Below, piece by piece: positions 4,458-18,298 of a stretch of 19,697 bases of DNA (within the stretch, counting starts at the first letter, position 1; every line of letters starts with the position of its first letter). The stretch covers positions 1 through 19,697 of the forward strand of contig CAJKXG010000001.1 of assembly GCA_905203795.1 (NCBI GenBank). The letters run 5' to 3'. The position numbers and the translations under genes are program-made. A model generated the notes under the pieces. That model did no database searches. It saw only the letters and a list, made by a program, of their open reading frames with translations, and was not told where the DNA came from. The DNA comes from an uncultured Oscillospiraceae bacterium. GTDB taxonomy: Bacteria > Bacillota > Clostridia > Oscillospirales > Acutalibacteraceae.

Positions 4458-4577
4458 GCAAAATAATCGCGATGAATTTGCGTATAGCGGAAAGATCGTT
4501 TGCCGGCGAAACAAATAGCCGTCACAGACATAACGTTTCCTCGCGGTCGCATATATGTGAACTGAGGGGGAATGACG

Positions 4578-5243
4578 ATGCTGAATGTCCTGTGGGCGGT
4601 TTTAATGCTGGTGTCCATCGTCGCGGGTGTGGTGAACGGGCGTATGGAGGAGGTCAACAACGCGCTGTTAGGGGGCGGTGGAGCGGCCATCACGTTGTCG
4701 CTGTCGCTCGGCGGCGCGATGTGCTTGTGGGGCGGCTTGCTCCGCGTGGCGGAAAAAGCCGGTGTGACCGAACGGCTGAGTAAATGGATGTCACCGCTAA
4801 TGCGCCTGTTGTTTCCGGGATTGCCGCCGGACGGTGCGGCCTGTCGCGCCATTCTCATGAACATAGCGGCAAATTTGCTGGGACTCGGCAATGCTGCCAC
4901 CCCGTTCGGCATCAAGGCGATGGAAGAACTGCAAGCCTGCAATCCGCGTCCGGATTACGCGTCTCGGCATATGATCACGTTTGTGGTATTGAATACCGCT
5001 TCCATTCAACTACTTCCCACCACGGTTGCCACGCTGCGCTTAGAAGCGGGTTCATCCAGCCCGATGGTGATCCTGCCCGCCGTGTGGCTGACTTCTATCG
5101 GCGCTGCTGCCATGGCGGTGCTGACCGCCAAATTGCTGGGAAAGGAGCGAACCCCACGTGCAACAACTGACCATCTGGGCGGTGCCGTTGTTCGTCACCG
5201 TCATACTGGGAGCGGGTCTCGTCAAACGGGTTGCCATATTTGA
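4578..5243 (+). CDS. spmA: Spore maturation protein A
   Basis: This is an integral membrane protein of the SpmA family, needed with SpmB for proper dehydration of the spore core in Bacillus and Clostridium. The recognisable nucleoside-recognition (Gate) type region has NIAANLLGLGNAATPFGIKAM at residues 95-115 and ITFVVLNTASIQLLPTT at 133-149, with hydrophobic segments at 1-20, 33-55 and 162-187. ATG 4572 is in frame but only 1-2 nt from GAGGGGG (4564-4570). ATG 4578 has a 7-nt gap and is preferred, giving 221 residues. Family members usually end near 190-200. The last ~29 residues here are low in hydrophobicity and are read from DNA that also encodes the start of spmB, so the tail looks like an unconserved extension. 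The gene pair implies endospore formation. Confidence 0.93.
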   Translation: MLNVLWAVLMLVSIVAGVVNGRMEEVNNALLGGGGAAITLSLSLGGAMCLWGGLLRVAEKAGVTERLSKWMSPLMRLLFPGLPPDGAACRAILMNIAANLLGLGNAATPFGIKAMEELQACNPRPDYASRHMITFVVLNTASIQLLPTTVATLRLEAGSSSPMVILPAVWLTSIGAAAMAVLTAKLLGKERTPRATTDHLGGAVVRHRHTGSGSRQTGCHI

Positions 5244-5679
5244 CGAATTCACCACCGGTGCCGGAGATGGGCTGCGTACCTGCGTGCGGGTGCTGCCGTC
5301 TTTGGTCGCACTGATGACGGCGGTGGAAATGCTGCAAGCTTCCGGCATTACCGAACAAATCGCGTCGTTGCTGTCGTCTCCGGCAGCAGCAATCGGTTTT
5401 CCGCCGGAAGCATTGCCGCTGGCGTTTTTACGTCCGATCTCGGGTAGCGGTTCGCTTGCTGCACTCAAACAGGTGTTGTCTCACTATGGACCGGACAGCC
5501 ATGCAGGGCTGGTCGCCTGTGTGCTGCAATGCTCCACCGAAACCACCTTCTACACGATGGCGGTTTACTACGGTGCGGTACGGGTGCGGCATACCCGCCA
5601 CACCCTTGCGGCCGCGTCGATAGGGGATATCAGCGGCTTGATTTTTGCAGCGTTTACCGTGCGAATCCTGTTGCTTTGA
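5158..5679 (+). CDS. spmB: Spore maturation protein B
   Basis: This 173-residue membrane protein is the partner of SpmA in spore core dehydration. Family marks are VAIFDEFTTGAGDGLRT (25-41), RPISGSGSLAALKQ (92-105) and CSTETTFYTMAVYYGAV (125-141), with hydrophobic segments at 5-22, 46-60 and 158-173. The start is GTG 5158, preceded by AAAGGAG at 5141-5147 with a 10-nt gap. The N-terminus begins where SpmB proteins normally do, so the 86-nt overlap with spmA is real unless the spmA stop has shifted. The length matches the family (about 170-180). Translational coupling with spmA is likely. The next gene, adhE, has its own promoter. Confidence 0.93.
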   Translation: MQQLTIWAVPLFVTVILGAGLVKRVAIFDEFTTGAGDGLRTCVRVLPSLVALMTAVEMLQASGITEQIASLLSSPAAAIGFPPEALPLAFLRPISGSGSLAALKQVLSHYGPDSHAGLVACVLQCSTETTFYTMAVYYGAVRVRHTRHTLAAASIGDISGLIFAAFTVRILLL

Positions 5680-5703
5680 ACACAATTCCCTCTCGGATTG
5701 TGT
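5680..5703 (+). terminator. Possible weak terminator after spmB
   Basis: ACACAAT (5680-5686) pairs perfectly with ATTGTGT (5697-5703) across a 10-nt loop that could add two G-C pairs. The following ATTTCTC is only weakly T-rich. It overlaps the spmB stop codon. Confidence 0.35.
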
Positions 5704-5756: not shown

Positions 5757-5785
5757 TTGACGATTGCTTTTATTCATGATAAACT
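5757..5785 (+). promoter_or_regulatory. Strong sigma-A promoter of adhE
   Basis: TTGACG (5757-5762) and TAAACT (5780-5785) are separated by 17 nt, with an extended -10 (TGA immediately before TAAACT). Transcription should start near 5792, leaving a leader of about 70 nt before adhE. It is the only convincing promoter upstream of the six genes ending at 13829. Confidence 0.75.
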
Positions 5786-5794
5786 TAAGCTACA

Positions 5795-5812
5795 TTGTTA
5801 AAAAAATATCAA
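5795..5812. promoter_or_regulatory. Candidate Rex (NADH/NAD+ sensor) operator
   Basis: TTGTTAAAAAAATATCAA matches the clostridial Rex consensus TTGTTAAnnnnTTAACAA at 12 of 14 defined positions. The left half is perfect and the right half is 5 of 7. It lies 9 nt after the -10, directly over and just past the predicted transcription start, where a bound repressor would block initiation. Rex releases DNA when NADH is high, and adhE is a classical Rex target in Clostridia. No rex gene is in the window. Confidence 0.6.
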
Positions 5813-5860
5813 GCAAGTGAATTTTGCTTTTTGGTAGTTTCAGAAAGGATGGTCACGACG

Positions 5861-8458
5861 ATGGAACGAGAGAGAATCGAAACGGTGGAGCAGTTGGAAG
5901 CGGCGCTGAAGCGCGTGAAAGCGGCACAGGCAGTGTATGCGACGTATACGCAGGAACAGGTGGACGCGATCTTTTTGGCGGCGGCAACGGCGGCGAATCG
6001 GATGCGCATCCCGCTGGCCAAAATGGCGGTGGAAGAAACCGGCATGGGCGTGGTGGAGGATAAGGTCATCAAAAACCACTACGCGTCGGAATATATCTAC
6101 AATACATACCGCAACACCAAAACCTGCGGTGTGATCGAAGAGGATCAAGCGTTCGGCGTGAAGAAGATCGCCGAACCGATCGGCGTGGTAGCGGCGGTCA
6201 TCCCGACCACCAACCCGACCTCCACGGCGATCTTCAAGACGCTGATCGCGCTGAAAACGCGCAACGCCATCGTCATCAGTCCCCATCCGCGCGCGAAGGA
6301 AAGCACCATCGCGGCGGCGAAAGTGGTGCTGGACGCGGCTGTGGCGGCGGGCGCACCGGAGGGGATCATCGACTGGATCGACGTGCCGAGTCTGGAGCTG
6401 ACCAACACCGTGATGCGGGAAGCGGACATCATCCTTGCGACGGGCGGTCCGGGCATGGTGAAAGCGGCGTATTCCAGCGGCAAACCGGCGCTGGGCGTGG
6501 GCGCGGGCAACACCCCCGCCATCATCGACGACACGGCGGATATCCTGCTGGCGGTCAACTCGATCATCCATTCCAAGACGTTTGACAACGGCATGATCTG
6601 CGCGTCGGAGCAGTCGGTGATCGTGCTGGATAAGGTGTATGCGAAGGTGAAAAAGGAGTTTGCGGCGCGCGGCTGCTACTTCCTGAACAAAGAAGAAACC
6701 GAAAAGGTGCGCAAGGTGATCATCGTGAACGGCGCGCTGAACGCGAAGATCGTGGGACAGCCTGCGGCGAAGATCGCGGCGCTGGCGGATGTGACCGTGC
6801 CGGAAACCACGAAGATCCTGATCGGCGAAGTGGAAAGCGTGGAGCTGTCGGAGGAATTCGCACACGAAAAGCTGTCGCCGGTGCTGGCGATGTACAAGGC
6901 GAAGGATTTTGCCGATGCGCTGGATAAGGCGGAGCATCTGATCGCGGACGGCGGCTACGGACACACCTCGTCGGTGTATCTGAACACGGTGACCGAGCAG
7001 GCGAAGCTGGCGGAATTCGGCGAGCGGATGAAGACCTGCCGCATTCTGGTGAACACGCCGTCGTCGCAGGGCGGCATCGGCGATCTGTACAACTTCAAGC
7101 TGGCTCCGTCGCTGACGCTGGGCTGCGGCTCGTGGGGCGGCAACTCGGTCAGCGAAAACGTGGGTGTGAAGCATCTGCTGAATGTCAAGACGGTCGCCGA
7201 GAGGAGAGAGAATATGCTGTGGTTCCGTGCGCCGGAAAAGGTGTATATCAAGAAAGGCTGCCTGCCGGTGGCGCTGGATGAGCTGGGCGCCGTGATGGGC
7301 AAGAAAAAAGTGTTCATCGTGACCGACTCGTTCCTGTACAACAACGGGTACACCAAGGCGATCACGGATAAGCTGGACGAACTGGGCATCCGCCACACCA
7401 CGTTCTACAACGTCGCGCCCGATCCGACGCTGGCGTGCGCCAAGGAAGGCGCGGCACAGATGGCGGCGTTTGAGCCGGATTGCATCATCGCCGTGGGCGG
7501 CGGCTCTGCGATGGACGCAGGCAAGATCATGTGGGTGATGTACGAGCATCCGGAAGCGGACTTCATGGATATGGCGATGCGGTTTATGGATATCCGCAAG
7601 CGCGTGTACACGTTCCCGAAGATGGGGGAGAAAGCGTACTTCATCGCGGTGCCGACGTCGGCCGGTACGGGTTCGGAGGTGACGCCGTTTGCGGTCATCA
7701 CCGACGAGCAGACGGGTGTGAAATATCCGCTGGCGGATTATGAGCTGCTGCCGAAGATGGCGATCGTGGACGCGGACATGATGATGAACGCGCCGAAGGG
7801 GTTGACGTCTGCGTCGGGTATCGACGCGGTGACGCACGCGCTGGAGGCGTATGCGTCGATGCTGGCGACGGATTACACCGACGGTCTGGCGCTGCGTTCG
7901 CTGCAAATGATCTTCGAGTATCTGCCGCGCGCATACGACAACGGACCGAACGATCCGGTGGCGCGTGAAAAAATGGCGAATGCGGCGACAATGGCGGGCA
8001 TGGCGTTTGCCAACGCGTTCCTCGGCGTGTGCCATTCGATGGCGCATAAGCTGGGTGCGTTCTACCATCTGCCGCACGGCGTGGCGAATGCGCTGATGAT
8101 CGACGAGGTGCTGCGGTTCAATGCGGCGGAAGTGCCGACGAAGATGGGCACGTTCCCGCAGTATGACCATCCGCACACGCTGGCACGGTACGCCGAGGTG
8201 GCGGACGCGCTGGGTGTGAAGGGCAAGACCAACGAAGACAAGCTGAACGGTCTGATCGCGAAGATCGACGAATTGAAGGAAAAGATCGGCATCAAAAAGA
8301 CGATCCGCGACTACGGTGTGGATGAACAGGAATTCCTGGCGCGTCTGGACGACATGTGCGAGCAGGCGTTCGACGACCAGTGCACCGGCGCCAACCCGCG
8401 CTATCCGCTGATCTCCGAGATCAAGCAAATGTACCTCAACGCCTATTACGGCGCGTGA
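5861..8458 (+). CDS. adhE: Bifunctional acetaldehyde-CoA / alcohol dehydrogenase
   Basis: AdhE reduces acetyl-CoA to acetaldehyde and then ethanol, using two NADH, and forms cytoplasmic spirosome filaments. From ATG 5861 it has 865 residues, normal for the family. The N-terminal CoA-acylating aldehyde dehydrogenase domain (about 1-440) has the catalytic C247 in FDNGMICASEQS and the PTTNPTSTAIFK segment at 115-126. A linker leads to the iron-dependent alcohol dehydrogenase domain (about 450-865), with GGGSAMDAGK at 546-555, TSAGTGSEVTPFA, and iron ligands D655, H659, H725 and H739. ATG 5849 is also in frame, but AGAAAGGA ends directly before it; ATG 5861 is about 12 nt away, slightly long. Codon use is strongly biased, which suggests high expression. 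A promoter and a Rex-like operator lie upstream, and the kinase gene follows after 31 nt. Both active sites look intact. Confidence 0.97.
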   Translation: MERERIETVEQLEAALKRVKAAQAVYATYTQEQVDAIFLAAATAANRMRIPLAKMAVEETGMGVVEDKVIKNHYASEYIYNTYRNTKTCGVIEEDQAFGVKKIAEPIGVVAAVIPTTNPTSTAIFKTLIALKTRNAIVISPHPRAKESTIAAAKVVLDAAVAAGAPEGIIDWIDVPSLELTNTVMREADIILATGGPGMVKAAYSSGKPALGVGAGNTPAIIDDTADILLAVNSIIHSKTFDNGMICASEQSVIVLDKVYAKVKKEFAARGCYFLNKEETEKVRKVIIVNGALNAKIVGQPAAKIAALADVTVPETTKILIGEVESVELSEEFAHEKLSPVLAMYKAKDFADALDKAEHLIADGGYGHTSSVYLNTVTEQAKLAEFGERMKTCRILVNTPSSQGGIGDLYNFKLAPSLTLGCGSWGGNSVSENVGVKHLLNVKTVAERRENMLWFRAPEKVYIKKGCLPVALDELGAVMGKKKVFIVTDSFLYNNGYTKAITDKLDELGIRHTTFYNVAPDPTLACAKEGAAQMAAFEPDCIIAVGGGSAMDAGKIMWVMYEHPEADFMDMAMRFMDIRKRVYTFPKMGEKAYFIAVPTSAGTGSEVTPFAVITDEQTGVKYPLADYELLPKMAIVDADMMMNAPKGLTSASGIDAVTHALEAYASMLATDYTDGLALRSLQMIFEYLPRAYDNGPNDPVAREKMANAATMAGMAFANAFLGVCHSMAHKLGAFYHLPHGVANALMIDEVLRFNAAEVPTKMGTFPQYDHPHTLARYAEVADALGVKGKTNEDKLNGLIAKIDELKEKIGIKKTIRDYGVDEQEFLARLDDMCEQAFDDQCTGANPRYPLISEIKQMYLNAYYGA

Positions 8459-8489
8459 TCCCCATATTTTTCGGAAAGGACTGTCTTGT

Positions 8490-9239
8490 ATGAATCTCGA
8501 AAAAGTCATTGCTGTCCGCAATAATAAAACCGTGTATCGCGACGGCGATAAGGTCATCAAGGTGTTTGACGAAGCCTATTCCAAGTCGGATGTCCTCAAC
8601 GAAGCGCTGAACCAGGCGCGTGTGGAGGAGACGGCGCTGAACATTCCGCGCATTCTGGAAGTCACGAAAACCGACGGCAAGTGGGCGATCGTGTCCGAGT
8701 TTATCCCGGGCAAAACGCTGGCGCGCCTGATGGAGGAAGAGCCTGCGCGCGAGGACGAATATCTCAATCTGTTCGTCAATCTGCAAATGGAGATGCACGC
8801 GCAAAACTCGCCGCTGCTGAACAAGTTGAAGGATAAAATGAACCGCAAGATCTGCGAAACCACGCTGGACGCGACCACGCGGTATGAGCTGCATACGCGT
8901 CTGGAGGGAATGCCGCGCCACAACAAAGTGTGCCACGGCGATTTCCACCCCGCGAACATCATTATCACGCCGGAAGGCACGCCCTACATCCTCGACTGGT
9001 CGCATGCCACGCAGGGCAATGCGTCTGCGGATGTGGCGCGTACCTATCTGCTGTTCCGTCTGGCGGGCGAGGACGCGCGCGCCGAGAAATATCTTGACCT
9101 GTTCTGCGAAAAGAGCGATACCGCCCGGCAGTACATCCAGAAGTGGCTGCCCATCGTGGCGGCTTCCCAGTCGGTCAAAGGCAAACCGGAGGAACGCGAG
9201 TTCCTGCTCCGCTGGGTGAACGTGGTGGATTACGAATAA
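8490..9239 (+). CDS. APH/choline-kinase-fold phosphotransferase
   Basis: This 249-residue soluble kinase belongs to the aminoglycoside phosphotransferase/choline kinase superfamily. The ATP-binding lysine is probably K24 in KVIKVF. The catalytic loop is HGDFHPANI at 149-157, with D151 as catalytic base and N155 as metal ligand. The second metal aspartate is D169 in YILDWSHA. The hinge-like segment WAIVSEFIPGKTLARL lies at 65-80. GGAAAGGA (8473-8480) is 9 nt before ATG 8490. It lies 31 nt after adhE and 46 nt before the ferredoxin gene, with no terminator on either side, so it is probably co-transcribed with both. The substrate is unknown: small alcohol, sugar or protein are all possible in this superfamily. 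Nothing here shows it to be a resistance gene, and its setting argues against that. Confidence 0.8.
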   Translation: MNLEKVIAVRNNKTVYRDGDKVIKVFDEAYSKSDVLNEALNQARVEETALNIPRILEVTKTDGKWAIVSEFIPGKTLARLMEEEPAREDEYLNLFVNLQMEMHAQNSPLLNKLKDKMNRKICETTLDATTRYELHTRLEGMPRHNKVCHGDFHPANIIITPEGTPYILDWSHATQGNASADVARTYLLFRLAGEDARAEKYLDLFCEKSDTARQYIQKWLPIVAASQSVKGKPEEREFLLRWVNVVDYE

Positions 9240-9285
9240 GCAAAAGCGATGGGTACAGATTGGTACAGAAAGGAAGGATCATACC

Positions 9286-9531
9286 GTGAAAATCACCATT
9301 TGCATCGGCAGTTCCTGCCATTTGAAGGGTTCACGCCAAGTTGTAGAAGAATTGCAAAAGCTGATTACGGAACACAATGTCGGCGACAAAGTGGAGCTGG
9401 CGGGGACGTTTTGCATGAACAATTGCCAAAACGGCGTGTGCGTGACGGTGGACGGCGCGGCACATTCCCTGTCACCGGAAACCACCCGCACCTTCTTCGA
9501 GACGGAAGTATTGCCCGCACTGAAAGCCTGA
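9286..9531 (+). CDS. Thioredoxin-like [2Fe-2S] ferredoxin (NuoE/HydC-type domain)
   Basis: This 81-residue protein contains only a thioredoxin-fold [2Fe-2S] domain as in NuoE and HydC. The four expected ligands are C6 and C11 (CIGSSC) and C43 and C47 (CMNNC); C52 is an additional cysteine in the same loop (CQNGVC). GTG 9286 is the start, with AAGGAAGGA (9270-9278) 7-8 nt upstream. It is followed after 15 nt by the sensory hydrogenase gene. Such small ferredoxins often accompany these hydrogenase clusters, so it probably passes electrons to or from one of the two encoded hydrogenases. Which partner it uses cannot be seen. It lacks the N-terminal helical part of full NuoE, so it is unlikely to be a complex I subunit. 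Confidence 0.88.
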   Translation: MKITICIGSSCHLKGSRQVVEELQKLITEHNVGDKVELAGTFCMNNCQNGVCVTVDGAAHSLSPETTRTFFETEVLPALKA

Positions 9532-9546
9532 TTCGGGGGTCTACAT

Positions 9547-11223
9547 ATGGCAGAGTTTTTGAAGCTGAAAAAATCGAACTGCAAGAATTGCTATAAATGT
9601 ATCCGCCACTGCCCTGTAAAGTCCATCCGCTTTTCAGGCAACCAAGCGAATATCGTGGGGAACGAGTGCATTCTCTGCGGTCAGTGCTTCGTGGTCTGCC
9701 CGCAAAACGCGAAAGAAATCGCGGACGACACGGAACGCGTAGGCGTGATGCTGCACGGTGATGCGCCGGTTTACGCCAGCGTAGCGCCCTCCTTTGTCGC
9801 CAACTACGACGGCATCGGGATCGAAACGTTGGGAAAAGCATTAAAGGCGTTGGGCTTTACAGATGCGGAGGAAACCGCCATCGGCGCGACCATCGTCAAG
9901 AAGGAGTATGAGCGCATCCTGCGGGAGGAAAAACCGCCGGTGCTGATCTCCTCCTGTTGCCATTCCGTCAACCTGCTGATCCAGAAGCACTTCCAAGGCG
10001 CGCTGAGTTATCTCGCGGCCGTGGAATCGCCTATGCAGGCGCATTGTCAGGACATCAAACGCCGCCATCCGGATGCGAAGGTCGTGTTTATCGGACCGTG
10101 CGTCGCCAAAAAGGACGAGGCGGATCACTACGCCGGCTTCGCGGACGCGGTGCTGACCTTTGAGGAGCTGTCGCGTATGATGGATCAGGCGGGCGTGACG
10201 CTGGAAAGCGGTGCGGATGTGACGGAGGAGAGCCGCGCGCGTTTGTTCCCGACGACGGGCGGTATCCTCAAAACCATGGTGCAGGATCAGCCGGACTATA
10301 CGTATATGGCGATCGACGGTGTGGAAAACTGCATGGCGGCGTTGCAGGAGATCGAGCAGGGCGGCTTGCGCCACTGCTTTATCGAGATGTCCGCCTGCGT
10401 GGGAAGCTGCGTCGGCGGTCCGGTCATGGAAAAATACCACCGTTCGCCCGTCCGCAGCTTTGCGGCGGTGTCGTCGTACGCGGGTCAAAAGGATTTCGCC
10501 GTGGAATCGCCCGCGCCGGAGAAAATCCATAAGTCTATCGAATATATCGGTCGCAAGCTGCCGATGCCGACCGAGGCGGAGATCACCGCCATCCTGCGGC
10601 AGATGGGGAAAATGAAGCCGGCGCACGAACTGAATTGCGGCTCGTGCGGCTATAACACCTGCCGCGAAAAGGCGATCGCGGTGTATCAGGGCAAGGCGGA
10701 TCTGACGATGTGCCTGCCGTTTCTCAAGGATCGCGCGGAGAATTTCACCGATAATATCCTCAATAATACCCCCAACGGCATTGTGGTGCTGAACGAGGAA
10801 CTGGAAGTGCAGCAGCTCAACCGCGCGGCGTGCCGCATTTTGAATCTGCGCAACGCGTCGGATGTGCTGGGCGAGCAGGTGATCCGCATTCTCGACCCGC
10901 AGGATTTCATGAAGGTGCGCGACGAAGGCGCCAGCATCCGCGATCACCGCGTGTATCTGGCGGAATACAACAAATACGTGGAGGAGACCATCCTCTACGA
11001 CCGCGAATACCGCGTCGTGATGGCAATCCTGCGCGACGTCACCGATGAGGAGAGCCAGCGCGAGCGCAAGGAGGCTATCAGCCGTCAGACAGTGGAGATC
11101 GCCGACCGCGTCGTGGATAAACAGATGCGGATCGTGCAGGAAATCGCGTCGCTGCTCGGCGAGACGGCGGCGGAAACCAAAATTGCCCTGACCAAGCTGA
11201 AGGAGTCGATTTCGGATGAATAA
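9547..11223 (+). CDS. Sensory-type [FeFe] hydrogenase with PAS domain (HsfB/HydS, group C-like)
   Basis: This 558-residue protein combines a hydrogenase fold with a signalling module. Two [4Fe-4S] sites lie at C12/15/18/22 and C41/44/47/51. The H-cluster domain follows: L1 as SSCCHSVN (C137, C138), L2 as GPCVAKKDE (C185) and L3 as MSACVGSCVGG (C284, C288). All four cluster ligands are kept, but L1 lacks the PxW of catalytic enzymes and the residue two before C284 is Ser instead of the Met of CpI. A further four-cysteine domain (C364/367/372/389) precedes a PAS domain (about 400-500) and a helical, probably coiled-coil tail. There is no kinase or DNA-binding output of its own. The start is ATG 9547 with a weak GGGGG site. 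The end overlaps the phosphatase gene by 8 nt (ATGAATAA), implying tight coupling and a sensor-effector pair. The H2-sensing role is inferred from family and architecture. Confidence 0.9.
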   Translation: MAEFLKLKKSNCKNCYKCIRHCPVKSIRFSGNQANIVGNECILCGQCFVVCPQNAKEIADDTERVGVMLHGDAPVYASVAPSFVANYDGIGIETLGKALKALGFTDAEETAIGATIVKKEYERILREEKPPVLISSCCHSVNLLIQKHFQGALSYLAAVESPMQAHCQDIKRRHPDAKVVFIGPCVAKKDEADHYAGFADAVLTFEELSRMMDQAGVTLESGADVTEESRARLFPTTGGILKTMVQDQPDYTYMAIDGVENCMAALQEIEQGGLRHCFIEMSACVGSCVGGPVMEKYHRSPVRSFAAVSSYAGQKDFAVESPAPEKIHKSIEYIGRKLPMPTEAEITAILRQMGKMKPAHELNCGSCGYNTCREKAIAVYQGKADLTMCLPFLKDRAENFTDNILNNTPNGIVVLNEELEVQQLNRAACRILNLRNASDVLGEQVIRILDPQDFMKVRDEGASIRDHRVYLAEYNKYVEETILYDREYRVVMAILRDVTDEESQRERKEAISRQTVEIADRVVDKQMRIVQEIASLLGETAAETKIALTKLKESISDE

Positions 11224-12388
11224 TTTGTGCGCCGACATCGGCTATAAAAGCGTCAATAAACACGGCGAGCAGTTGTGCGGCGACCATATCGACGTGGTGG
11301 AGCAGGACGAGCGCTCTACCGTGATCGTGTTGGCGGACGGCTTGGGAAGCGGCGTCAAAGCCAGCATCCTGTCTACGCTGACTTCCAAGATCATCTCCAC
11401 CATGGTGGCGGAAAACATCCCGCTGGAGGATTGTGTGGCGACCATCGCCGCCACATTGCCGGTCTGTTCGGTGCGCGGCGTGGCGTATTCCACCTTCACC
11501 ATTATTCGGCTGGTGGACAACGAAGAAGCGGAGATTATCCAATACGATAACCCGCCGGTGATCCTGTTGCGGGACGGCGTTAACGTGGAATATCCGTATA
11601 CCGAGACGACCATCGGCGGCAAGGTGATCCGCCGTTCCCGCATTCCGTTGCAGGAAAACGACCTGTTCATCGCCATGAGCGACGGCGCGATCCACGCCGG
11701 CGTCGGCATGACGCTGAATTTCGGCTGGGAGCGCGAGGATATCGTCAAATTCATGGAGGCCTTCTATGATGTGGGCTTCACCGCCAAAACGCTCACCACC
11801 ATCCTGCTGGACGAGTGCTGTCGGCTGTACGGCGGCGAGCCGGGGGACGACACCACCGTCTGCACGGTGCGCATCCGTCGGCGCGAGCCGATGAATCTGA
11901 TGCTCGGTCCGCCCGCCAACCGCGACGACGTGAATAAAATGATGTCGCTGTTCTTTTCCAAGGGCGGCAAGCACATCGTGTGCGGCGGTACGACCTCGTC
12001 GTTGGCGGCGGCGTATCTGCGCAAGCCGCTTGTGCCGAAGCTGGATTTCGCCGATCCGGAGATCCCGCCGATCGCGGAGATCGAAGGGGTGGATCTGGTG
12101 ACGGAGGGCGTGATCACCATGAGCCGTGTGCTGACCTATGCGCAGGATTATCTCAAGGATAACGAGACATATCATCAGTGGAGCTGTCATCAGGACGGCG
12201 CGTCCAAAATCGCCCGCCTGTTGTTTGAGGAAGCGACGGATATCCGTTTCTTCGTCGGGCGCGCGGTCAATCCGGCGCACCAAAACCCCAATCTGCCCAT
12301 CAATTTCAATATCAAGATGCGGCTGGTGGATGAGCTGACGGATTGCCTGAAGCGCATGGGAAAACGCATCACCGTCACGTATTTCTGA
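11216..12388 (+). CDS. SpoIIE/PP2C-type serine/threonine phosphatase with extra C-terminal domain
   Basis: The first ~222 residues of this 390-residue protein form a metal-dependent SpoIIE-like phosphatase. Metal-binding motifs are GD at 23-24, ADGLGSG at 40-46 (D41, G42), SDGAIHAG at 155-162 (D156) and PGDDTTV at 209-215 (D211, D212). All the acidic residues needed for activity seem present. Residues about 225-390 form a separate domain that I cannot name, with LGPPANRDDV, CGGTTSSLAAAYL (256-268) and EGVDLVTEGVITMSRVL (290-306). There is no membrane segment, so it is not SpoIIE itself. The gene overlaps the sensory hydrogenase gene by 8 nt and is followed after 16 nt by the catalytic hydrogenase gene. 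Its likely job is to relay the sensor's state by dephosphorylating an unknown partner, possibly an anti-sigma antagonist or an enzyme. Signal direction and target are inference. Confidence 0.88.
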   Translation: MNNLCADIGYKSVNKHGEQLCGDHIDVVEQDERSTVIVLADGLGSGVKASILSTLTSKIISTMVAENIPLEDCVATIAATLPVCSVRGVAYSTFTIIRLVDNEEAEIIQYDNPPVILLRDGVNVEYPYTETTIGGKVIRRSRIPLQENDLFIAMSDGAIHAGVGMTLNFGWEREDIVKFMEAFYDVGFTAKTLTTILLDECCRLYGGEPGDDTTVCTVRIRRREPMNLMLGPPANRDDVNKMMSLFFSKGGKHIVCGGTTSSLAAAYLRKPLVPKLDFADPEIPPIAEIEGVDLVTEGVITMSRVLTYAQDYLKDNETYHQWSCHQDGASKIARLLFEEATDIRFFVGRAVNPAHQNPNLPINFNIKMRLVDELTDCLKRMGKRITVTYF

Positions 12389-12404
12389 TTCCGGAGGAGT
12401 TGCC

Positions 12405-13829
12405 ATGAGAAAATTCGACACCAAGGTGCAGCATCTGAAATATAAGGTGCTGCGTGAGGTCGCACGGCAGGCGTGGAACAATACGCTGCTGGAGCACGTG
12501 ACCGATATTCCGAAAATCATCGTGCCCGGTAAGGAACCGACGATGCGCTGCTGCGTCTATAAGGAACGCGCCATTCTCGGCGAGCGCGTCAAGATGGCGA
12601 TGGGCGGCGATAAATCCAACCCCAATGTCATCGAAGTCATCGACATCGCGTGCGACGAATGTCCGACGAGCGGCTATTCCGTGACGGATTCCTGCCGCGG
12701 CTGTATCGCGCATCGCTGCGAGGACGTCTGCAAGCGCGGTGCAATCAGTTTCGATCAGCACCAGAAAGCGCATATCGACAAATCCAAATGCGTGGAGTGC
12801 GGTCAGTGCGCGAAGGTTTGCCCGTACAGCGCTATCAGCAACAATAAACGCCCTTGCGAAAATGCCTGCAAAATCAAGGCGATCTCCATGGGCGAAAGCA
12901 TGGCGGCGTCGATCGACAACGAAAAATGCATTTCCTGCGGCGCGTGCGTGTACCAATGCCCGTTTGGCGCGATCACGGACAAGTCGTTTATTCTGAATGT
13001 GATCGATCTCATCCAGCGCAGCGAAGGCAATCAGGCGTATAAGGTGTACGCCGTCATCGCCCCGTCCATTTCCAGCCAGTTTACCTATGCCAAGCTGGGA
13101 CAGGTCATCGCCGGCATCAAAAAGCTGGGCTTCTTCACGGTGGTGGAAGCGGCACTCGGCGCGGACATGGTCGCGTGGGCGGAATCGGCGGAATTGGTGG
13201 AAAAAGGCGTGCTGACCAGTTCCTGCTGTCCGGCGTTTGTGGCGTATATCCATCAACAGTTCCCGTCGCTGACAGGGTATATTTCCCACAACCTCTCTCC
13301 GGCGGCAACCATTGCCAAGTACATCAAGGAGACCGATCCCGAGGCGAAAATCGTGTTTATCGGTCCGTGCACGGCGAAGAAAATGGAGTTCCAGAAGCCG
13401 GAGGTGCGCCCGTATATCGACAGTGTGATCACGTTTGAGGAATTGCAGGCGCTGTTCGACAGCCGTGATCTCGACATCATGACGCTGGAAGAGGACGTGC
13501 TGGACAACGCTTCCTATTACGGTCGCATTTTTGCCCGCAGCGGCGGTCTGTCCGACGCGGTGGCGCAGGGCTTGAAGGAACACGGCATCGACGATTTTGA
13601 GCTGAAAGCGATGCCCTGCGACGGCATTGAAGCGTGCCGTGCGGCGCTGCTCCGCCTGTCCAAAAAAGTGCTGCCCGCCAACTTTATCGAGGGTATGGCG
13701 TGCGTCGGCGGCTGTATCGGCGGCGCCGGTTGCCTGACCCACGGCGAAAAGAATAAAGCGGAAGTGGACAAGTACGGTCAGGAAGCCTTGGAAAAGACGA
13801 TCGGTGACGCGATCGGTCAGTTGAAATAA
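12405..13829 (+). CDS. Monomeric [FeFe] hydrogenase, group B1/B3-like
   Basis: This is a 474-residue ferredoxin-linked hydrogenase. H-cluster motifs are TSSCCPAF (C274, C275), IGPCTAKKMEF (C322) and GMACVGGCIGG (C433, C437). The Met two before C433 is kept as in CpI, while the Met normally two before the L2 cysteine is Gly. The cysteine-rich N-terminal half has C97/100/105/109, C129/132/135/139, an inserted pair C151/C155, and C175/178/181/185, so three [4Fe-4S] sites are likely; C49, C50, C83 and C86 lie further upstream. This spacing differs from the CpI-type enzyme and fits the group B family. GGAGGAG (12392-12398) precedes ATG 12405. It is the last gene before a strong terminator. It probably evolves H2 from reduced ferredoxin, though uptake or regulation cannot be excluded. 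No maturation genes are adjacent. Confidence 0.93.
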   Translation: MRKFDTKVQHLKYKVLREVARQAWNNTLLEHVTDIPKIIVPGKEPTMRCCVYKERAILGERVKMAMGGDKSNPNVIEVIDIACDECPTSGYSVTDSCRGCIAHRCEDVCKRGAISFDQHQKAHIDKSKCVECGQCAKVCPYSAISNNKRPCENACKIKAISMGESMAASIDNEKCISCGACVYQCPFGAITDKSFILNVIDLIQRSEGNQAYKVYAVIAPSISSQFTYAKLGQVIAGIKKLGFFTVVEAALGADMVAWAESAELVEKGVLTSSCCPAFVAYIHQQFPSLTGYISHNLSPAATIAKYIKETDPEAKIVFIGPCTAKKMEFQKPEVRPYIDSVITFEELQALFDSRDLDIMTLEEDVLDNASYYGRIFARSGGLSDAVAQGLKEHGIDDFELKAMPCDGIEACRAALLRLSKKVLPANFIEGMACVGGCIGGAGCLTHGEKNKAEVDKYGQEALEKTIGDAIGQLK

Positions 13830-13846
13830 CCAAATCGCTTGTTGCG

Positions 13847-13878
13847 CACCGACCGCCGAAAACGGCGGTCGGTGTTTT
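13847..13878 (+). terminator. Strong Rho-independent terminator closing the adhE-hydrogenase unit
   Basis: A perfect 12-bp G+C-rich stem (13847-13858 with 13863-13874) has an AAAA loop and is followed by TTTT (13875-13878). It begins 17 nt after the hydrogenase stop codon and is the first clear terminator downstream of the adhE promoter. Confidence 0.9.
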
Positions 13879-14083: not shown

Positions 14084-14112
14084 TTGACATCGTTTAAAGA
14101 ATGTGGTATGGT
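14084..14112 (+). promoter_or_regulatory. Predicted sigma-A promoter of the dockerin gene
   Basis: A consensus TTGACA (14084-14089) and TATGGT (14107-14112) are 17 nt apart, with an extended -10 (TGTGG before TATGGT). The leader would be about 65 nt. It contains a small GACCGC/GCGGTC inverted repeat (14125-14138), which is too short to name. Confidence 0.7.
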
Positions 14113-14185: not shown

Positions 14186-17100
14186 ATGAAGCGATGGCTG
14201 GCTTTGCTGCTGACGTGTTTACTGACCGTGCCGTTTTCGCTGCTCCCGCAAATGGTGAGCGCCGAAAGCGACCGCGTATTGGCGGATACGACCTACACAG
14301 TGGCGCTTAAGAAAACCATCCCGAACAGCGGATTGCTGGTTTCCAACGGCAAAAAGTTTACTGCCGTGGACCTGTCCGCGTACGACATGAGTAAATTGGC
14401 ACTGGAAATGGATGTTCTCTATAACGGGGATGTCGATGGTGTTAAGCAAGCAGCCGGTGCTACCGTGGAGCTGACCAGCTCCGGCGAATCCGGCAAACAA
14501 TCCCTCACATGGTCCGCTGCCGACTGGGATTGGAAGAAAAACGAATGGTTCCGTGTGAGCATGCCGCTTGATCAAGCGGTCAATAGCGACTTCAATCTTG
14601 CTCGTGTGAACTATGTCCGTCTGGCGATCATCGGTCTGCCGGACGCGATGAAGGGCAAGCAGGTGACGTTCCGCGTGTGCAACGTGCGTGTGGTGGATAC
14701 CACCGTCGCTGCTCCGGCGGACGATCGCATCGGTGACGGCACACCGCCCGAGCTGATCCCCAACTGGCAGATCGTGGAGAGCGAGTATCCCACGAATGAG
14801 TTGGTGGTCGCCGGTTTCGATCTGAGCGATTTTATGCAGCCGAACACCGACGAGGATGCGACGACGCTGATCCAGTCGCTGCTCGATAAGCTGTTTGAAG
14901 TGGGCGGCGGCACGCTGTATATTCCGGAGGGCGAATACGTCCTGAAGGGCAAGCTGTTGTTGCAGGAGGGCGTGACGATCAGCGGTGACTGGCGCGCGCC
15001 GACTGCCGAAAATCCGCAAGCGACCGGCACGATCCTGAAGGCGTATTACGGTCGCGGTATGACGGAAGATACAACCGGCAATACCTCCAATGCCTTCATC
15101 ACCCTCAGCCCGAACTCCAGTGTGGAGAATCTGACCATCTGGTATCCGGAGCAGGATCCGGAGAATATTGTGCCGTATCCGGTGTCCATCCTGCTGTATG
15201 ACCCGACCAGCTGGGGCAAGGACTATACGCATGTGCGCAACATGACGTTCATCAACTCCTATAAAGCGGTCAAGCAAGGTCCGGAGGGCAGCGGTTGCCC
15301 GAATATCCACAATGTCTACGGCACGCCGTTGTATAACGGCGCACAACTGGACGGCATCGCGGACGTGGGTCGTTTTGATTACATGTTCTTCTCGCCGTTC
15401 TACTGGGAGAACTGCGGTCTGCCGGGCGCACCGACCACCGATGCCGCGAAAAAGGCGCTTGAGGATTACCTCATCAAAAACGCCACCGGCATTATGGTGC
15501 AGCGCGTGGACTGGTCGTATTTCGCGTTCTCGCGTGTGGAAGGCTACCTGAACGGTATGTATTTTGCCGAGTCGGTGCATTCGCCCGGTTCGTACTCCAA
15601 CGGTCAGTGCTATGACATGACCTTTGTGAACTGCGACACCGGTATTCTGTTTGAGGGTATCGCGAACGCCGGCGAGCTGTTTGCCAAGATCAATATTGAC
15701 AATTGCCGCATCGGTATCCGCGACTATTATCACAAGGATATCGCGGTCGGCAACATGGAGCTCAGCTATATCACCATCGACGCGACCGAAACAGCGATCT
15801 GGCATCAGGGCACCAACCGTATGATCTTCTTTGAGACCACGGTGGAAAACGGCGATGTCATTTCGGAGCATGGTCCGTTGGTGATGTCCGCCTGCGATTT
15901 CAAGACGGCAGCGCCGCAGATCACGCTGCCCATCGGTGCGACCGGCGGCATCTTCCACGGCAACACCGCGGAAGGCGATTTCAAGGTATCCAATCCGGGT
16001 CTTGCACCTGTTACCATCGACGAAAAGCCTCTCAAAACGCCCGATATCGATTTCCTGACGGCGGAGCAGGCGGAGGATAAGTTCAGCAAACCGGCGCGCA
16101 ATGTGCTGTATCTGGCGGATCTGGATGCGACGCAGAAAACCGATGTGACGGCGGCGTTGCAGGAACTGCTGGATAAAGCCGGCAAAGAAGGCGGCGGCGT
16201 GGTGTTTATCCCCGGCGGTCGCTATCGTATGGATGGCAGCGTGACTGTCCCGAGCGGCGTGGAACTGCGCGGCGCGGTCAATGTGGGTCGCAACCCCTTC
16301 AAAACGGGCACGATCCTCGAAGTATACGGCAAGACGGGCGACCCGACGGTGGTGCTGAGCGCCAACAGCGGTGCGGTCGGTCTGGTGTTCGATTATCCCG
16401 TGCAGGGCAACTCTATTGACGATTTGGAAGAATACCCCTATGCGCTGCAAGGTCGCGGCGAAAATGTCTATATGATCAATATCGCCCTGCGCAACGCCTA
16501 CAACGGCATCGACCTGATGACCTACCGCTGCGATAACCACTATGTGCGGTACATGGCGGGCTTCTGCTTCAACAACGCCATCAAGATCGGCGGCGGTTCG
16601 AAGAACGGCGTCGTTTCCAACTATCAGATGAACTCCAGCGCGTGGCTGAACGGTGCGGAGAGCAAGTACGGTTCTTGGGAGAATTCGCCGCGCGAAGTGG
16701 GCGACGGCAGCAATCCGGACGCGGTGTCCTCGATGCAAAAGGCGACGGAACTGCGCGACCTGCTGGTGCAGAAGAACTGCCATAGCCTGATCGTCGGCGA
16801 CGTCACCGATCAGATCCTGTACGACAACTTCACGTATATCGGCGCGCGCGGCGCGATCTTTGTCGAAGAAAACGGCAAGGGCGCCAGCGGCTGGAACGTC
16901 GGTAACGCCTACGACTACACCACGACCGGCATTGAAATCCAGGCTCTGGATGATATGGATTTCATCAATGTGCAGATCGTGAGCTATAACTACACTGCGA
17001 ATTTCGGCAGCGATGTGATTCATCAGATCTACACCAATGAGAAATTTGATGGCGAAGTCAACTTTGTCAACGTTGCCTGCTGGGCACAGCCGACCAGCTT

Positions 17101-18298
17101 TGTCCGTGTAGACGGCGGTAAGGTGAACATCTACAACAGCAACTACGATTCGCGCACCAAGAGCAACGCGTTTATGAGCGTCAAGGACGGCGCAACGCTG
17201 TATATGCAAAACGGCGCGCTGTACAGCTCCGGTCTCAAGCTGCTGATGACAGAGGACAGCGCTCATGATGCGCTGACCATGAACGGCTTCTATTATGAGA
17301 ACACGATGAGTGACATGTCCGACATCGAGGGCTTTACCAGCAACCAAAAGCGTCTGACCGCATGGAATGTGCCGACGAACGCGGTGATCGATCCCGAAGC
17401 GACCATGATCTTTACCGAGACCTTCGACGATTATCCCGTGCAGGAGGAGCCGGTGAACGGCGTCAATAACGCGTTTGGTTCGCAGGGCTCTTTCTCCAAG
17501 ACGTCTGCGCCGGATGCGGGCGTCAATGTGACGCTGGTGCGTACCGGCTCGCAGTTTGCGGCCCGTCTGTACATGACGGCTGATAAATCCAGCGTGTCGA
17601 TGAACAACGATACCATCGTGCTGGACAGCGGTTCGGCGGATTCGCTGTATCACTTTGAGACGCGTGTGAACATCGGCTCCATGTGCAGCGGCGAATATTC
17701 GCAGTTCTATATCGCGGCGTACAATATTGCCGGCACGATCGCGCGCGAACCGATGCAGCTCGTGGTGTTCAACGGCAAAAACGAGGTGCAAGTGGACGGC
17801 AAAACGCTGACCACTTGGGAAAAGAACACATGGTATCGTGTGGGTATCGAAATCGACCTGCGTGATCAGAAGCATAAGACCTATCGCGTGTATCTCTTTG
17901 ATGACGAGTACAACGTGATCGCGATCAGCGGACTGGCAGCTTTCGATGAAGGCTATCAGGACAACGACGGCGGTGTGGGTCACTTCTCCTTCGAGGGTCT
18001 GGCGGACAGTGCCGCCGCGTCCAATGAAACGATTACGGCGATGGTGGAATACTGCTACATCTCCGGTCGTGACCAAAGCTCCTTCCCGCAAGCTCCGGAC
18101 GATGGTAAGAGGGGCGATGTGAACGGAGACGGTTCGGTGGACAGCTCGGATGCCCGTATGATCCTGCAAGCCTCCGTCAATAAGATCACGCTGACAGACA
18201 GCCAGCAGACCGTGGCGGATGTGAACGGTGACCAGACGATCGACAGCTCGGATGCCCGTATGGTGCTGCAAGCGGCGGTCGGTAAGATCACACTGTAA
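14186..18298 (+). CDS. Secreted multidomain protein with two tandem pectate-lyase-like beta-helix modules and a type I dockerin
   Basis: This 1370-residue extracellular protein probably acts on or binds plant polysaccharide. A signal peptide is clear: KR, a hydrophobic core, then cleavage after VSA near residue 26. Residues about 30-178 form a beta-rich, carbohydrate-binding-like module. Two beta-helix modules follow, each opening with a pectate-lyase-3 type signature: DATTLIQSLLDK then GGGTLYIPEGEYVL (from about 222), and DVTAALQELLDK then GGGVVFIPGGRYRM (from about 648). Two such modules in tandem recall GH55 glucanases, but I cannot place a catalytic residue, so activity is unproven. About 1075-1292 looks like a LamG/concanavalin-type fold. 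A dockerin covers 1310-1370. AAGGAAGG (14169-14176) is 9 nt before ATG 14186. Promoter and terminator flank it, so it is monocistronic. The dockerin implies anchoring to a cohesin scaffold encoded elsewhere. Confidence 0.85.
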   Translation: MKRWLALLLTCLLTVPFSLLPQMVSAESDRVLADTTYTVALKKTIPNSGLLVSNGKKFTAVDLSAYDMSKLALEMDVLYNGDVDGVKQAAGATVELTSSGESGKQSLTWSAADWDWKKNEWFRVSMPLDQAVNSDFNLARVNYVRLAIIGLPDAMKGKQVTFRVCNVRVVDTTVAAPADDRIGDGTPPELIPNWQIVESEYPTNELVVAGFDLSDFMQPNTDEDATTLIQSLLDKLFEVGGGTLYIPEGEYVLKGKLLLQEGVTISGDWRAPTAENPQATGTILKAYYGRGMTEDTTGNTSNAFITLSPNSSVENLTIWYPEQDPENIVPYPVSILLYDPTSWGKDYTHVRNMTFINSYKAVKQGPEGSGCPNIHNVYGTPLYNGAQLDGIADVGRFDYMFFSPFYWENCGLPGAPTTDAAKKALEDYLIKNATGIMVQRVDWSYFAFSRVEGYLNGMYFAESVHSPGSYSNGQCYDMTFVNCDTGILFEGIANAGELFAKINIDNCRIGIRDYYHKDIAVGNMELSYITIDATETAIWHQGTNRMIFFETTVENGDVISEHGPLVMSACDFKTAAPQITLPIGATGGIFHGNTAEGDFKVSNPGLAPVTIDEKPLKTPDIDFLTAEQAEDKFSKPARNVLYLADLDATQKTDVTAALQELLDKAGKEGGGVVFIPGGRYRMDGSVTVPSGVELRGAVNVGRNPFKTGTILEVYGKTGDPTVVLSANSGAVGLVFDYPVQGNSIDDLEEYPYALQGRGENVYMINIALRNAYNGIDLMTYRCDNHYVRYMAGFCFNNAIKIGGGSKNGVVSNYQMNSSAWLNGAESKYGSWENSPREVGDGSNPDAVSSMQKATELRDLLVQKNCHSLIVGDVTDQILYDNFTYIGARGAIFVEENGKGASGWNVGNAYDYTTTGIEIQALDDMDFINVQIVSYNYTANFGSDVIHQIYTNEKFDGEVNFVNVACWAQPTSFVRVDGGKVNIYNSNYDSRTKSNAFMSVKDGATLYMQNGALYSSGLKLLMTEDSAHDALTMNGFYYENTMSDMSDIEGFTSNQKRLTAWNVPTNAVIDPEATMIFTETFDDYPVQEEPVNGVNNAFGSQGSFSKTSAPDAGVNVTLVRTGSQFAARLYMTADKSSVSMNNDTIVLDSGSADSLYHFETRVNIGSMCSGEYSQFYIAAYNIAGTIAREPMQLVVFNGKNEVQVDGKTLTTWEKNTWYRVGIEIDLRDQKHKTYRVYLFDDEYNVIAISGLAAFDEGYQDNDGGVGHFSFEGLADSAAASNETITAMVEYCYISGRDQSSFPQAPDDGKRGDVNGDGSVDSSDARMILQASVNKITLTDSQQTVADVNGDQTIDSSDARMVLQAAVGKITL
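18113..18295 (+). repeat. Dockerin duplicated calcium-binding segment
   Basis: This encodes two F-hand half-repeats, DVNGDGSVDSSDARMILQA and DVNGDQTIDSSDARMVLQA, each followed by xxVxKITL. Calcium ligands fall at positions 1, 3, 5, 9 and 12 of each loop. The DNA of the two SSDAR regions is identical over 21 bases, so the duplication is recent or kept uniform. Confidence 0.9.

What the first reader, a model, noticed from the sequence alone, without database searches (positions are those of the whole stretch)
5757..13878. Single redox unit joining adhE, a kinase, a ferredoxin, a sensory hydrogenase, a phosphatase and a catalytic hydrogenase
Seen: one strong promoter, six same-strand genes with gaps of 31, 46, 15, -8 and 16 nt, no internal terminator, one strong terminator at the end. 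Known: AdhE uses NADH; group B-type hydrogenases work with ferredoxin; PAS-bearing [FeFe] hydrogenases are thought to sense H2 or redox state. I recall a related link between ethanol dehydrogenase, HydS and HydA2 in Ruminococcus albus, but have not checked it. Inference: the unit balances ethanol against H2, with the sensor reading H2 and the phosphatase relaying it. The kinase and ferredoxin make it a fuller circuit than sensor plus enzyme.
Basis: partly seen in the sequence, partly recalled or inferred. Interest (0 to 1): 0.75.

Follow-up and report, generated by a model that had tools for sequence, protein, structure and literature searches.

The report
Ethanol-and-hydrogen redox operon of Clostridia
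Six neighbouring genes that make ethanol and hydrogen, with a putative hydrogen sensor and its phosphatase between them, form one conserved unit of a kind already known from the rumen bacterium Ruminococcus albus, and a Rex-type operator match at its promoter suggests that the NADH level helps to switch it on.

Summary
In detail: six + strand genes, 5861-13829, gaps 31, 46, 15, -8 and 16 nt, no internal + strand terminator-like site, a strong hairpin at 13846-13875. The promoter is only an average match. The unit is not new in kind. R. albus 7 plasmid pRUMAL01 carries rex-adhE-phosphotransferase-trxF-trxF-HydS-SpoIIE phosphatase-HydA2, matching in count and content the published eight-gene cluster that falls 111-fold in co-culture with an H2 consumer. 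All six genes were seen together in 40 of 80 related loci; adhE was never seen without the kinase (43 of 43). The window is a trimmed version: no rex, no second trxF, no adjacent lysR. New here: a 12/14 Rex-box match at the adhE promoter (5795-5812), also in 12 of 14 other adhE-led relatives. rex-led relatives encode a variant Rex, and a TATCGATA element was found only in genomes that have it (30 of 37 against 0 of 39). Best reading: Rex reads NADH/NAD+ for transcription; HydS with its phosphatase is a second layer. H2 sensing and the targets of kinase and phosphatase remain undemonstrated.

The parts
5757..5785 (+). candidate sigma-70 promoter TTGACG-17-TAAACT with TG before the -10
   Evidence: 9 of 12 matches; not above chance by itself
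5795..5812 (+). Rex-box-like operator TTGTTAAAAAAATATCAA, just after the -10 hexamer
   Evidence: 12 of 14 consensus positions; only match with up to 3 mismatches in the window, but 44 of 200 shuffled windows have at least one such match; 12 of 14 other adhE-led relatives have a >=12/14 match within 300 bp upstream, shuffles 0.8%
5861..8458 (+). adhE, bifunctional acetaldehyde-CoA/alcohol dehydrogenase (865 aa)
   Evidence: NF010378 1398.6 bits, cut-off 951; 78% identical to R. albus pRUMAL01 AdhE
8490..9239 (+). APH-fold small kinase (249 aa), substrate unknown
   Evidence: PF01636; K24, H149-G150-D151, N156, D169-W170 invariant in 26 rows; AlphaFold2 mean pLDDT 89.4
9286..9531 (+). TrxF-like thioredoxin-fold [2Fe-2S] protein (81 aa, GTG start)
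   Evidence: PF01257 27.9 bits, cut-off 24.8; C6-x4-C11 and C43-x3-C47 read from the sequence
9547..11223 (+). [quoted passage not shown]
   Evidence: PF02906, PF04060, PF00989; invariant cysteines; motifs in relatives
11216..12388 (+). SpoIIE/PP2C-type phosphatase with an extra C-terminal alpha/beta region, residues 225-390
12405..13829 (+). HydA2-like monomeric group B [FeFe]-hydrogenase (474 aa)
   Evidence: TIGR04105 563.1 bits, cut-off 450; 76% identical to R. albus HydA2
13846..13878 (+). intrinsic-terminator-like hairpin with a 13-bp stem and short T run
   Evidence: -30.7 kcal/mol, z -5.5

Best explanation
The six genes are one transcription unit, a trimmed member of the R. albus-type adhE-hydS-hydA2 cluster. 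SHOWN by sequence: gene content and order, conservation, intact catalytic and cluster-ligand residues, a Rex-box match at the promoter. INFERRED: when NADH and H2 build up, a housekeeping Rex repressor, loaded with NADH, leaves its box at 5795-5812 and the unit is transcribed. AdhE then spends NADH on ethanol and the group B hydrogenase spends reduced ferredoxin on H2, so pyruvate oxidation continues when the bifurcating hydrogenase is held back by H2. HydS (H-cluster, C-terminal Fe-S cluster, PAS) with the TrxF-like protein reads H2 or redox state and, through its conserved C-terminal stretch, sets the activity of the SpoIIE-type phosphatase encoded directly after it; this layer restrains adhE transcript and/or AdhE activity. 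The APH-fold kinase works on the AdhE side (AdhE, a partner or a metabolite); its substrate is a guess.
For: Gene order: 40 of 80 loci show all six; adhE with kinase 43 of 43; phosphatase after HydS 72 of 72 loci with at least 1.3 kb downstream. R. albus 7 has the same six plus rex and a second trxF, 64-78% identical protein by protein. Published transcription: eight-gene cluster 111-fold down in co-culture (passages of PMC6776011). Published genetics: hfsA or hfsB deletion raises adhE transcript two- to threefold and NADH-ADH activity, and high ethanol needs hfsC and hfsD (PMC5707799). Rex: window box; 12 of 14 other adhE-led loci >=12/14 against 0.8% in shuffles; 24 of 30 such matches in 1.16 Mb of loci, window included, lie within 300 bp upstream of the first visible unit gene; Rex boxes predicted before adhE and hfsABCD in T. 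saccharolyticum, where deleting rex raises adhE expression (passages of PMC5886521).
Against: No expression data for this organism, and no whole genome is held, so a rex gene in it is not shown. The window's Rex box is 12/14, a single case, and 44 of 200 shuffled windows hold some match with up to 3 mismatches. Genome-wide counts of the box show no clear excess over the reversed pattern; its left half resembles an extended -10, which shuffles do not allow for. Two adhE-led loci lack a >=12/14 box (L013 10, L037 8). L066 has a box though no Rex above the cut-off was found in its genome; L027 has a canonical-scoring Rex but no box. In T. saccharolyticum high-ethanol strains rex expression rises, opposite to a simple Rex explanation, and deleting the whole hfs operon does not raise ethanol substantially. 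R. albus itself has no canonical box in the locus examined (best 10/14). Target of the phosphatase and substrate of the kinase unknown.
Confidence: 0.72

Rival explanations
1. HydS is the transcriptional switch: it senses H2 directly and, through the phosphatase, switches an unknown transcription factor that turns the whole unit on at high H2 (model of Greening 2019, and of Zheng 2014 as cited by others).
For: Proposed in PMC6776011 (passages); HydS-phosphatase is the most constant pair and occurs without HydA in 5 of 61 loci with at least 4 kb downstream; a LysR-type gene lies next to many of these clusters.
Against: The six genes include no recognised transcription factor; Rex boxes and rex genes supply a known NADH-responsive route; loss of hfsB raises, not lowers, adhE transcript in T. 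saccharolyticum.
Confidence: 0.2
2. Kinase and phosphatase form a reversible protein-phosphorylation pair acting on AdhE.
For: Both conserved with adhE in the same unit; both keep their catalytic residues; NADH-ADH but not NADH-ALDH activity changes in hfs mutants, hinting at control of the enzyme itself (PMC5707799).
Against: The phosphatase is kept in loci that lack kinase and adhE; the best structural and sequence matches of the kinase are small-molecule kinases (APH, choline kinase), although weak protein-kinase matches also occur; no phosphorylation data on AdhE were seen.
Confidence: 0.2
3. Ordinary co-transcription only: adhE and the hfs-like genes share a promoter because both are Rex-controlled electron sinks; HydS is a minor hydrogenase and no signalling takes place.
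For: Rex boxes are predicted before both adhE and hfsABCD where the two are separate; HydS here keeps the proton-relay cysteine in 73 of 77 sequences, so it may turn over H2.
Against: PAS and Fe-S modules, constant phosphatase partner, opposite phenotypes of hfsAB and hfsCD deletions.
Confidence: 0.1

Closest known systems
Ruminococcus albus 7 pRUMAL01 eight-gene cluster (rex-adhE-kin-trxF1-trxF2-hydS-SpoIIE-hydA2)
   Same: Six genes in the same order and strand, 64-78% protein identity, overlapping HydS and phosphatase genes
   Different: Window lacks rex, trxF2 and an adjacent lysR gene and has a canonical Rex-box match that the R. albus locus lacks; R. albus has the TATCGATA element, which the window lacks
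hfsABCD of Thermoanaerobacterium saccharolyticum, with adhE elsewhere on the chromosome
   Same: PAS-bearing sensory hydrogenase, SpoIIE-type phosphatase, ferredoxin-linked hydrogenase in one operon; Rex boxes predicted before adhE and hfsA (passages)
   Different: adhE (Tsac_0416) is not in the hfs operon (Tsac_1550); sequences were not compared here, and whether hfsA corresponds to trxF was not tested
TmHydS and TamHydS, putative sensory [FeFe]-hydrogenases (groups C and D)
   Same: Two N-terminal 4Fe-4S sites, Cx2Cx4Cx16C in 77 of 77; Met353 to Gly (58 of 77, pattern silent in 19) and Met497 to Ser (72 of 77), as reported for TmHydS
   Different: The Cys299-equivalent, reported as not conserved in those subclasses, is present here in 73 of 77 sequences; TamHydS has no PAS domain

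Membership tests
R. albus-type adhE-hydS-hydA2 cluster | adhE, phosphotransferase, TrxF, HydS, SpoIIE phosphatase, HydA2 in this order on one strand | tested here: met
R. albus-type adhE-hydS-hydA2 cluster | rex as first gene and two trxF genes | tested here: not met
   No rex hit in the window; only one trxF place. Among relatives these vary: of 37 loci with at least 5.5 kb upstream, 18 have rex and 27 have two trxF, so I do not treat them as essential to the kind
R. albus-type adhE-hydS-hydA2 cluster | co-transcription, and fall in transcript when H2 is removed | not testable with these tools
   No expression data; structure only
Group C (M2f) sensory [FeFe]-hydrogenase | H-cluster cysteines, two N-terminal 4Fe-4S sites, Cx2Cx4Cx16C, PAS domain | tested here: met
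Group C (M2f) sensory [FeFe]-hydrogenase | absence of the Cys299 proton relay (reported for the subclass; may not define it) | tested here: not met
   SSCCHS in the window, Cys kept in 73 of 77; reported absence from PMC8163306 passages
Group B monomeric [FeFe]-hydrogenase (TIGR04105) | score above the curated cut-off | tested here: met
   563.1 against 450 bits; the group A model reaches 160.8, below its cut-off 405.95
SpoIIE/PP2C phosphatase | SpoIIE domain with conserved aspartates | tested here: met
Rex-controlled promoter | operator close to TTGTTAANNNNTTAACAA at the promoter | tested here: met
   12/14 at 5795-5812, conserved in position in relatives
Rex-controlled promoter | NADH-sensitive binding by Rex | not testable with these tools
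   needs EMSA or a reporter

The most novel reading that the evidence does not exclude
The switch of these units is a composite Rex/LysR promoter, not the sensory hydrogenase. A LysR-type activator encoded next door would bind a helically phased site near -61.5. A variant Rex paralogue (helix close to VRKDLxxVSGxGKPKxGY), usually encoded as first gene, would bind TATCGATA palindromes laid over that site, while the housekeeping Rex binds a box over the -10. The R. albus 111-fold response to removal of H2 would then be read through NADH by a plasmid-borne Rex variant with a new operator. The window would be a derivative that lost lysR and the variant rex and keeps only the housekeeping Rex box.
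Probability: 0.5. Interest if true: 0.62.

Novelty: new member of a known kind. Interest (0 to 1): 0.42.

Why it matters
Ruminal and gut Clostridia decide here between ethanol plus ferredoxin-linked H2 and acetate plus bifurcated H2, which feeds methanogens and sets ethanol yield. The standing model gives the decision to a putative H2-sensing hydrogenase. The comparative evidence adds a second, testable controller: Rex proteins with two different operators, one of which I did not find in print. That makes the question 'does the cell read H2 or NADH?' directly testable with short DNA fragments and two proteins.

Tried and rejected
A LysR protein as sole owner of the TATCGATA element: rejected, because lysR also stands before adhE-led units that lack the element (10 of 11 with room). 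Simple kinase-phosphatase pairing: weakened, since the phosphatase occurs without the kinase. The kinase as a drug-resistance gene: not favoured; only the fold is shared (APH(3') model 28.3 bits, cut-off 205), and it is kept inside a fermentation unit. De novo 8-mer search in adhE-led upstream regions gave AT-rich words close to the null. Genome-wide counts of the Rex box show no clear excess over the reversed pattern, so only its position at this promoter is informative. For the phosphatase C-terminal region (225-390) the fold searches were filled by PP2C hits, so its fold is untested. Literature searches for a Rex paralogue (4 papers) and for Rex with TATCGATA (370 papers, 20 shown, unspecific) listed nothing relevant.

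Limits: the TATCGATA pattern was written after I had seen the rex-led upstream regions among all 80 loci. Of the 15 element-positive genomes in the second set, 4 (L012, L039, L046, L068) had been seen with the element before and 11 had not. G050 (L037) has a Rex of intermediate score (183 bits) and was counted as without the variant. Extra element sites of the second set (for example in G027, G028, G051, G067) were not examined. Many contigs are truncated, so the label 'adhE-led' in the tree includes loci whose upstream end is missing; the genome-level labels avoid this. Genomes are mostly MAGs of unknown completeness. The tree is the quick kind with SH-aLRT support only. adhE counts use hits of at least 60% identity, so more distant ADH genes (L011, L039, L056, L071) are not counted. 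Gene names for L005, L006, L058, L071 and L074 downstream ORFs were read by eye. L083 (37% identity) was left out of the tree and of the HydS motif counts.

Full report
WHAT IS THERE. Families: AdhE (NF010378 1398.6 bits, cut-off 951); APH-fold kinase (PF01636); thioredoxin-like [2Fe-2S] protein (PF01257, 27.9 against 24.8 bits); an H-domain protein with Fer4, FeS and PAS domains (HydS); SpoIIE phosphatase (PF07228); group B1 hydrogenase (TIGR04105, 563.1 against 450 bits). No + strand terminator-like site lies inside. The hairpin after the last gene folds at -30.7 kcal/mol, z -5.5. The promoter at 5757-5785 is an average match: 9 of 12, with 18 such sites in the window against 12.3 expected. 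The upstream neighbour ends in its own hairpin (5680-5703, z -3.4).

KNOWN COUNTERPART. R. albus 7 plasmid pRUMAL01 (L081) reads lysR, rex, adhE, phosphotransferase, trxF, trxF, HydS, SpoIIE phosphatase, HydA2. The window proteins are 78, 68, 67, 64, 70 and 76% identical to their counterparts. Passages of PMC6776011 report a putative eight-gene cluster with ferredoxin-only hydrogenase, bifunctional alcohol/aldehyde dehydrogenase and sensory hydrogenase, 111-fold down in co-culture; they propose H2 sensing by the group C enzyme and do not name Rex (0 occurrences in the main text). That this cluster is the eight genes from rex to HydA2 is my match of count and content. [quoted passage not shown] Zheng 2014 itself is not held. 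PMC6776011 calls the hydrogenase group A1; the window's homologue scores as group B.

GENETICS IN A RELATIVE SYSTEM. In T. saccharolyticum, deletion of hfsA or hfsB (hfsB is called the homologue of R. albus hydS) raises ethanol, adhE transcript two- to threefold and NADH-ADH activity; deletion of hfsC or hfsD does not, and deletion of the whole operon had no substantial effect on ethanol (passages and Discussion of PMC5707799). The authors note that rex expression goes the opposite way from a simple Rex model. Passages of PMC5886521 give predicted Rex sites before adhE and hfsABCD, and higher adhE expression after rex deletion.

CONSERVATION. One genome scan returned 80 loci, its cap. All six genes were seen together in 40 of 80, many contigs being truncated. 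Among the 37 loci with at least 5.5 kb upstream, adhE and kinase occur together in 27, kinase alone in 5, neither in 5, adhE alone in none; over all 80, adhE with kinase 43 of 43. The phosphatase follows HydS in 72 of 72 loci with 1.3 kb downstream, with the same start-to-start distance as in the window (1669 nt) in 52 of the 79 measured. HydA is missing in 5 of 61 loci with 4 kb downstream. So HydS plus phosphatase is the fixed core, and the kinase goes with adhE. Most of the 37 have two trxF genes (27); the window has one. The window's nearest rows by tree path are L004 and L003, both rex-led with one trxF; its exact place is unresolved.

REX BOX AT THE WINDOW PROMOTER. TTGTTAAAAAAATATCAA at 5795-5812 matches 12 of 14 positions and is the only hit with up to 3 mismatches in the window (expected 0.27; 44 of 200 shuffles have at least one). 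Best match within 300 bp upstream of the first unit gene, >=12/14: adhE-led 13 of 15 (window included), rex-led 5 of 22, kinase-led 1 of 10, trxF-led 2 of 11; shuffles of the adhE-led regions 0.8%. In 1.16 Mb of loci, window included, 24 of 30 such matches fall within 300 bp upstream of the first visible unit gene. Genome-wide there is no clear excess over the reversed pattern, so the position carries the argument. Of the 10 adhE-led genomes searched, all with a box, 9 have a high-scoring Rex hit; L066 has none above the cut-off. Of 14 rex-led genomes, 5 of 6 with a second Rex hit of 70 bits or more have a box (L027 does not), and 0 of 8 without one have a box; here 'canonical' is by score. 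The canonical helix was read directly in 7 proteins of other genomes in the set.

VARIANT REX AND ITS ELEMENT (relatives, not the window). All 22 Rex proteins encoded in the units carry VRKDL..(V/I/A)S..G(K/R)P(K/R).G(Y/F), against IRQD.N.FG.FGQQGYGY in the 7 canonical ones read. Upstream of rex lies TATCGATA-N5-8-TA(T/C)CGA(T/C): 18 of 22 rex-led units by this pattern, 21 of 22 by a looser one. In 26 genomes or records: 15 of 16 with the variant Rex have it, 0 of 10 without. In 50 more: 15 of 21 with (at least 244 bits; the next hit below is 183), 0 of 29 without; 11 of those 15 had not been seen when the pattern was written. Together 30 of 37 against 0 of 39, with at least 12 changes of either label forced by well-supported branches of the HydS-phosphatase tree, so shared descent alone does not explain it. 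The reversed pattern hit 1 of 26 and 3 of 50. Of eight extra places examined, three are upstream of redox genes: a NuoE-HATPase-Nuo51 operon behind an array of TATCGATA copies (L144), an iron-ADH followed by a variant rex (L146), and a second variant rex followed by lactate/malate dehydrogenase and fumarase genes (L147); the other five overlap open reading frames (L145, L148, L149, L150, L151; the frame in L150 is short and may not be a gene). L020 has the element before HydS, with its variant rex elsewhere in the genome.

PROMOTER GEOMETRY. In 18 of 21 rex-led promoters with an element a -10-like hexamer (at least 4 of 6) starts exactly 38 nt after the element, the best or tied-best in 16; L064 is off by one, L038 and L068 do not fit. 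Of the three other element sites tested, L020 is off by one, L144 and L146 do not fit. Taking the hexamer as -12 to -7, the element is centred near -61.5. Most adhE-led promoters keep a similar backbone without CGAT; compare L017/L019 with L010, and L072/L033 with L050; L030 is less alike. A lysR gene stands within 1.8 kb upstream in 14 of 19 rex-led and 10 of 11 adhE-led loci with room, but only 2 of 8 kinase-led and 1 of 7 trxF-led. I read this as a LysR-type activator site with variant-Rex palindromes laid over it. The window has neither a lysR gene (no significant hit) nor this element, and its promoter is built differently.

VERDICT. The new parts are the Rex-box match at its promoter and, in relatives, a Rex variant tied to its own operator. 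Direct H2 sensing by HydS, and what the kinase and phosphatase act on, remain open.

Noticed in passing
L081:4276-4297 and other rex-led loci (18 of 22 by the strict pattern); genomes: TATCGATA-N5-8-TAYCGAY element found only in genomes that encode a variant Rex with an altered recognition helix (30 of 37 against 0 of 39).
   Followed up: yes
rex-led and adhE-led promoters, e.g. L072 and L050 upstream of the first gene: Backbone element phase-locked near -61.5 plus a lysR gene close upstream in 24 of 30 rex-led or adhE-led loci with room; looks like a LysR-type activator site.
   Followed up: partly
L144:2623-2681: Array of TATCGATA copies upstream of a NuoE-HATPase-Nuo51 (bifurcating-hydrogenase-like) operon in a relative, suggesting the variant Rex also controls that hydrogenase.
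   Followed up: partly
window 9547-11223, residue C137; 73 of 77 HydS sequences: The Cys299-equivalent proton-relay cysteine is retained, with the following Pro replaced by His, unlike reports for TmHydS and TamHydS.
   Followed up: partly
L005, L006, L058, L071, L074: HydS plus phosphatase without a following HydA; L074 instead continues with a LysR-like gene and, as read by eye, dehydrogenase and NuoE/NuoF-like genes.
   Followed up: partly
window 11216-12388, residues 225-390: Phosphatase carries a conserved extra C-terminal alpha/beta region with no Pfam match, perhaps a ligand or partner domain.
   Followed up: partly
window 14186-18298: 1370-aa protein with pectate-lyase-like stretches and a C-terminal dockerin; the best promoter-like match of the window (14084-14112, 10 of 12) lies before it. 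The organism is probably a fibre degrader.
   Followed up: no
window 4572-5679: Two overlapping Gate-domain genes upstream, SpmA/SpmB-like by recall.
   Followed up: no
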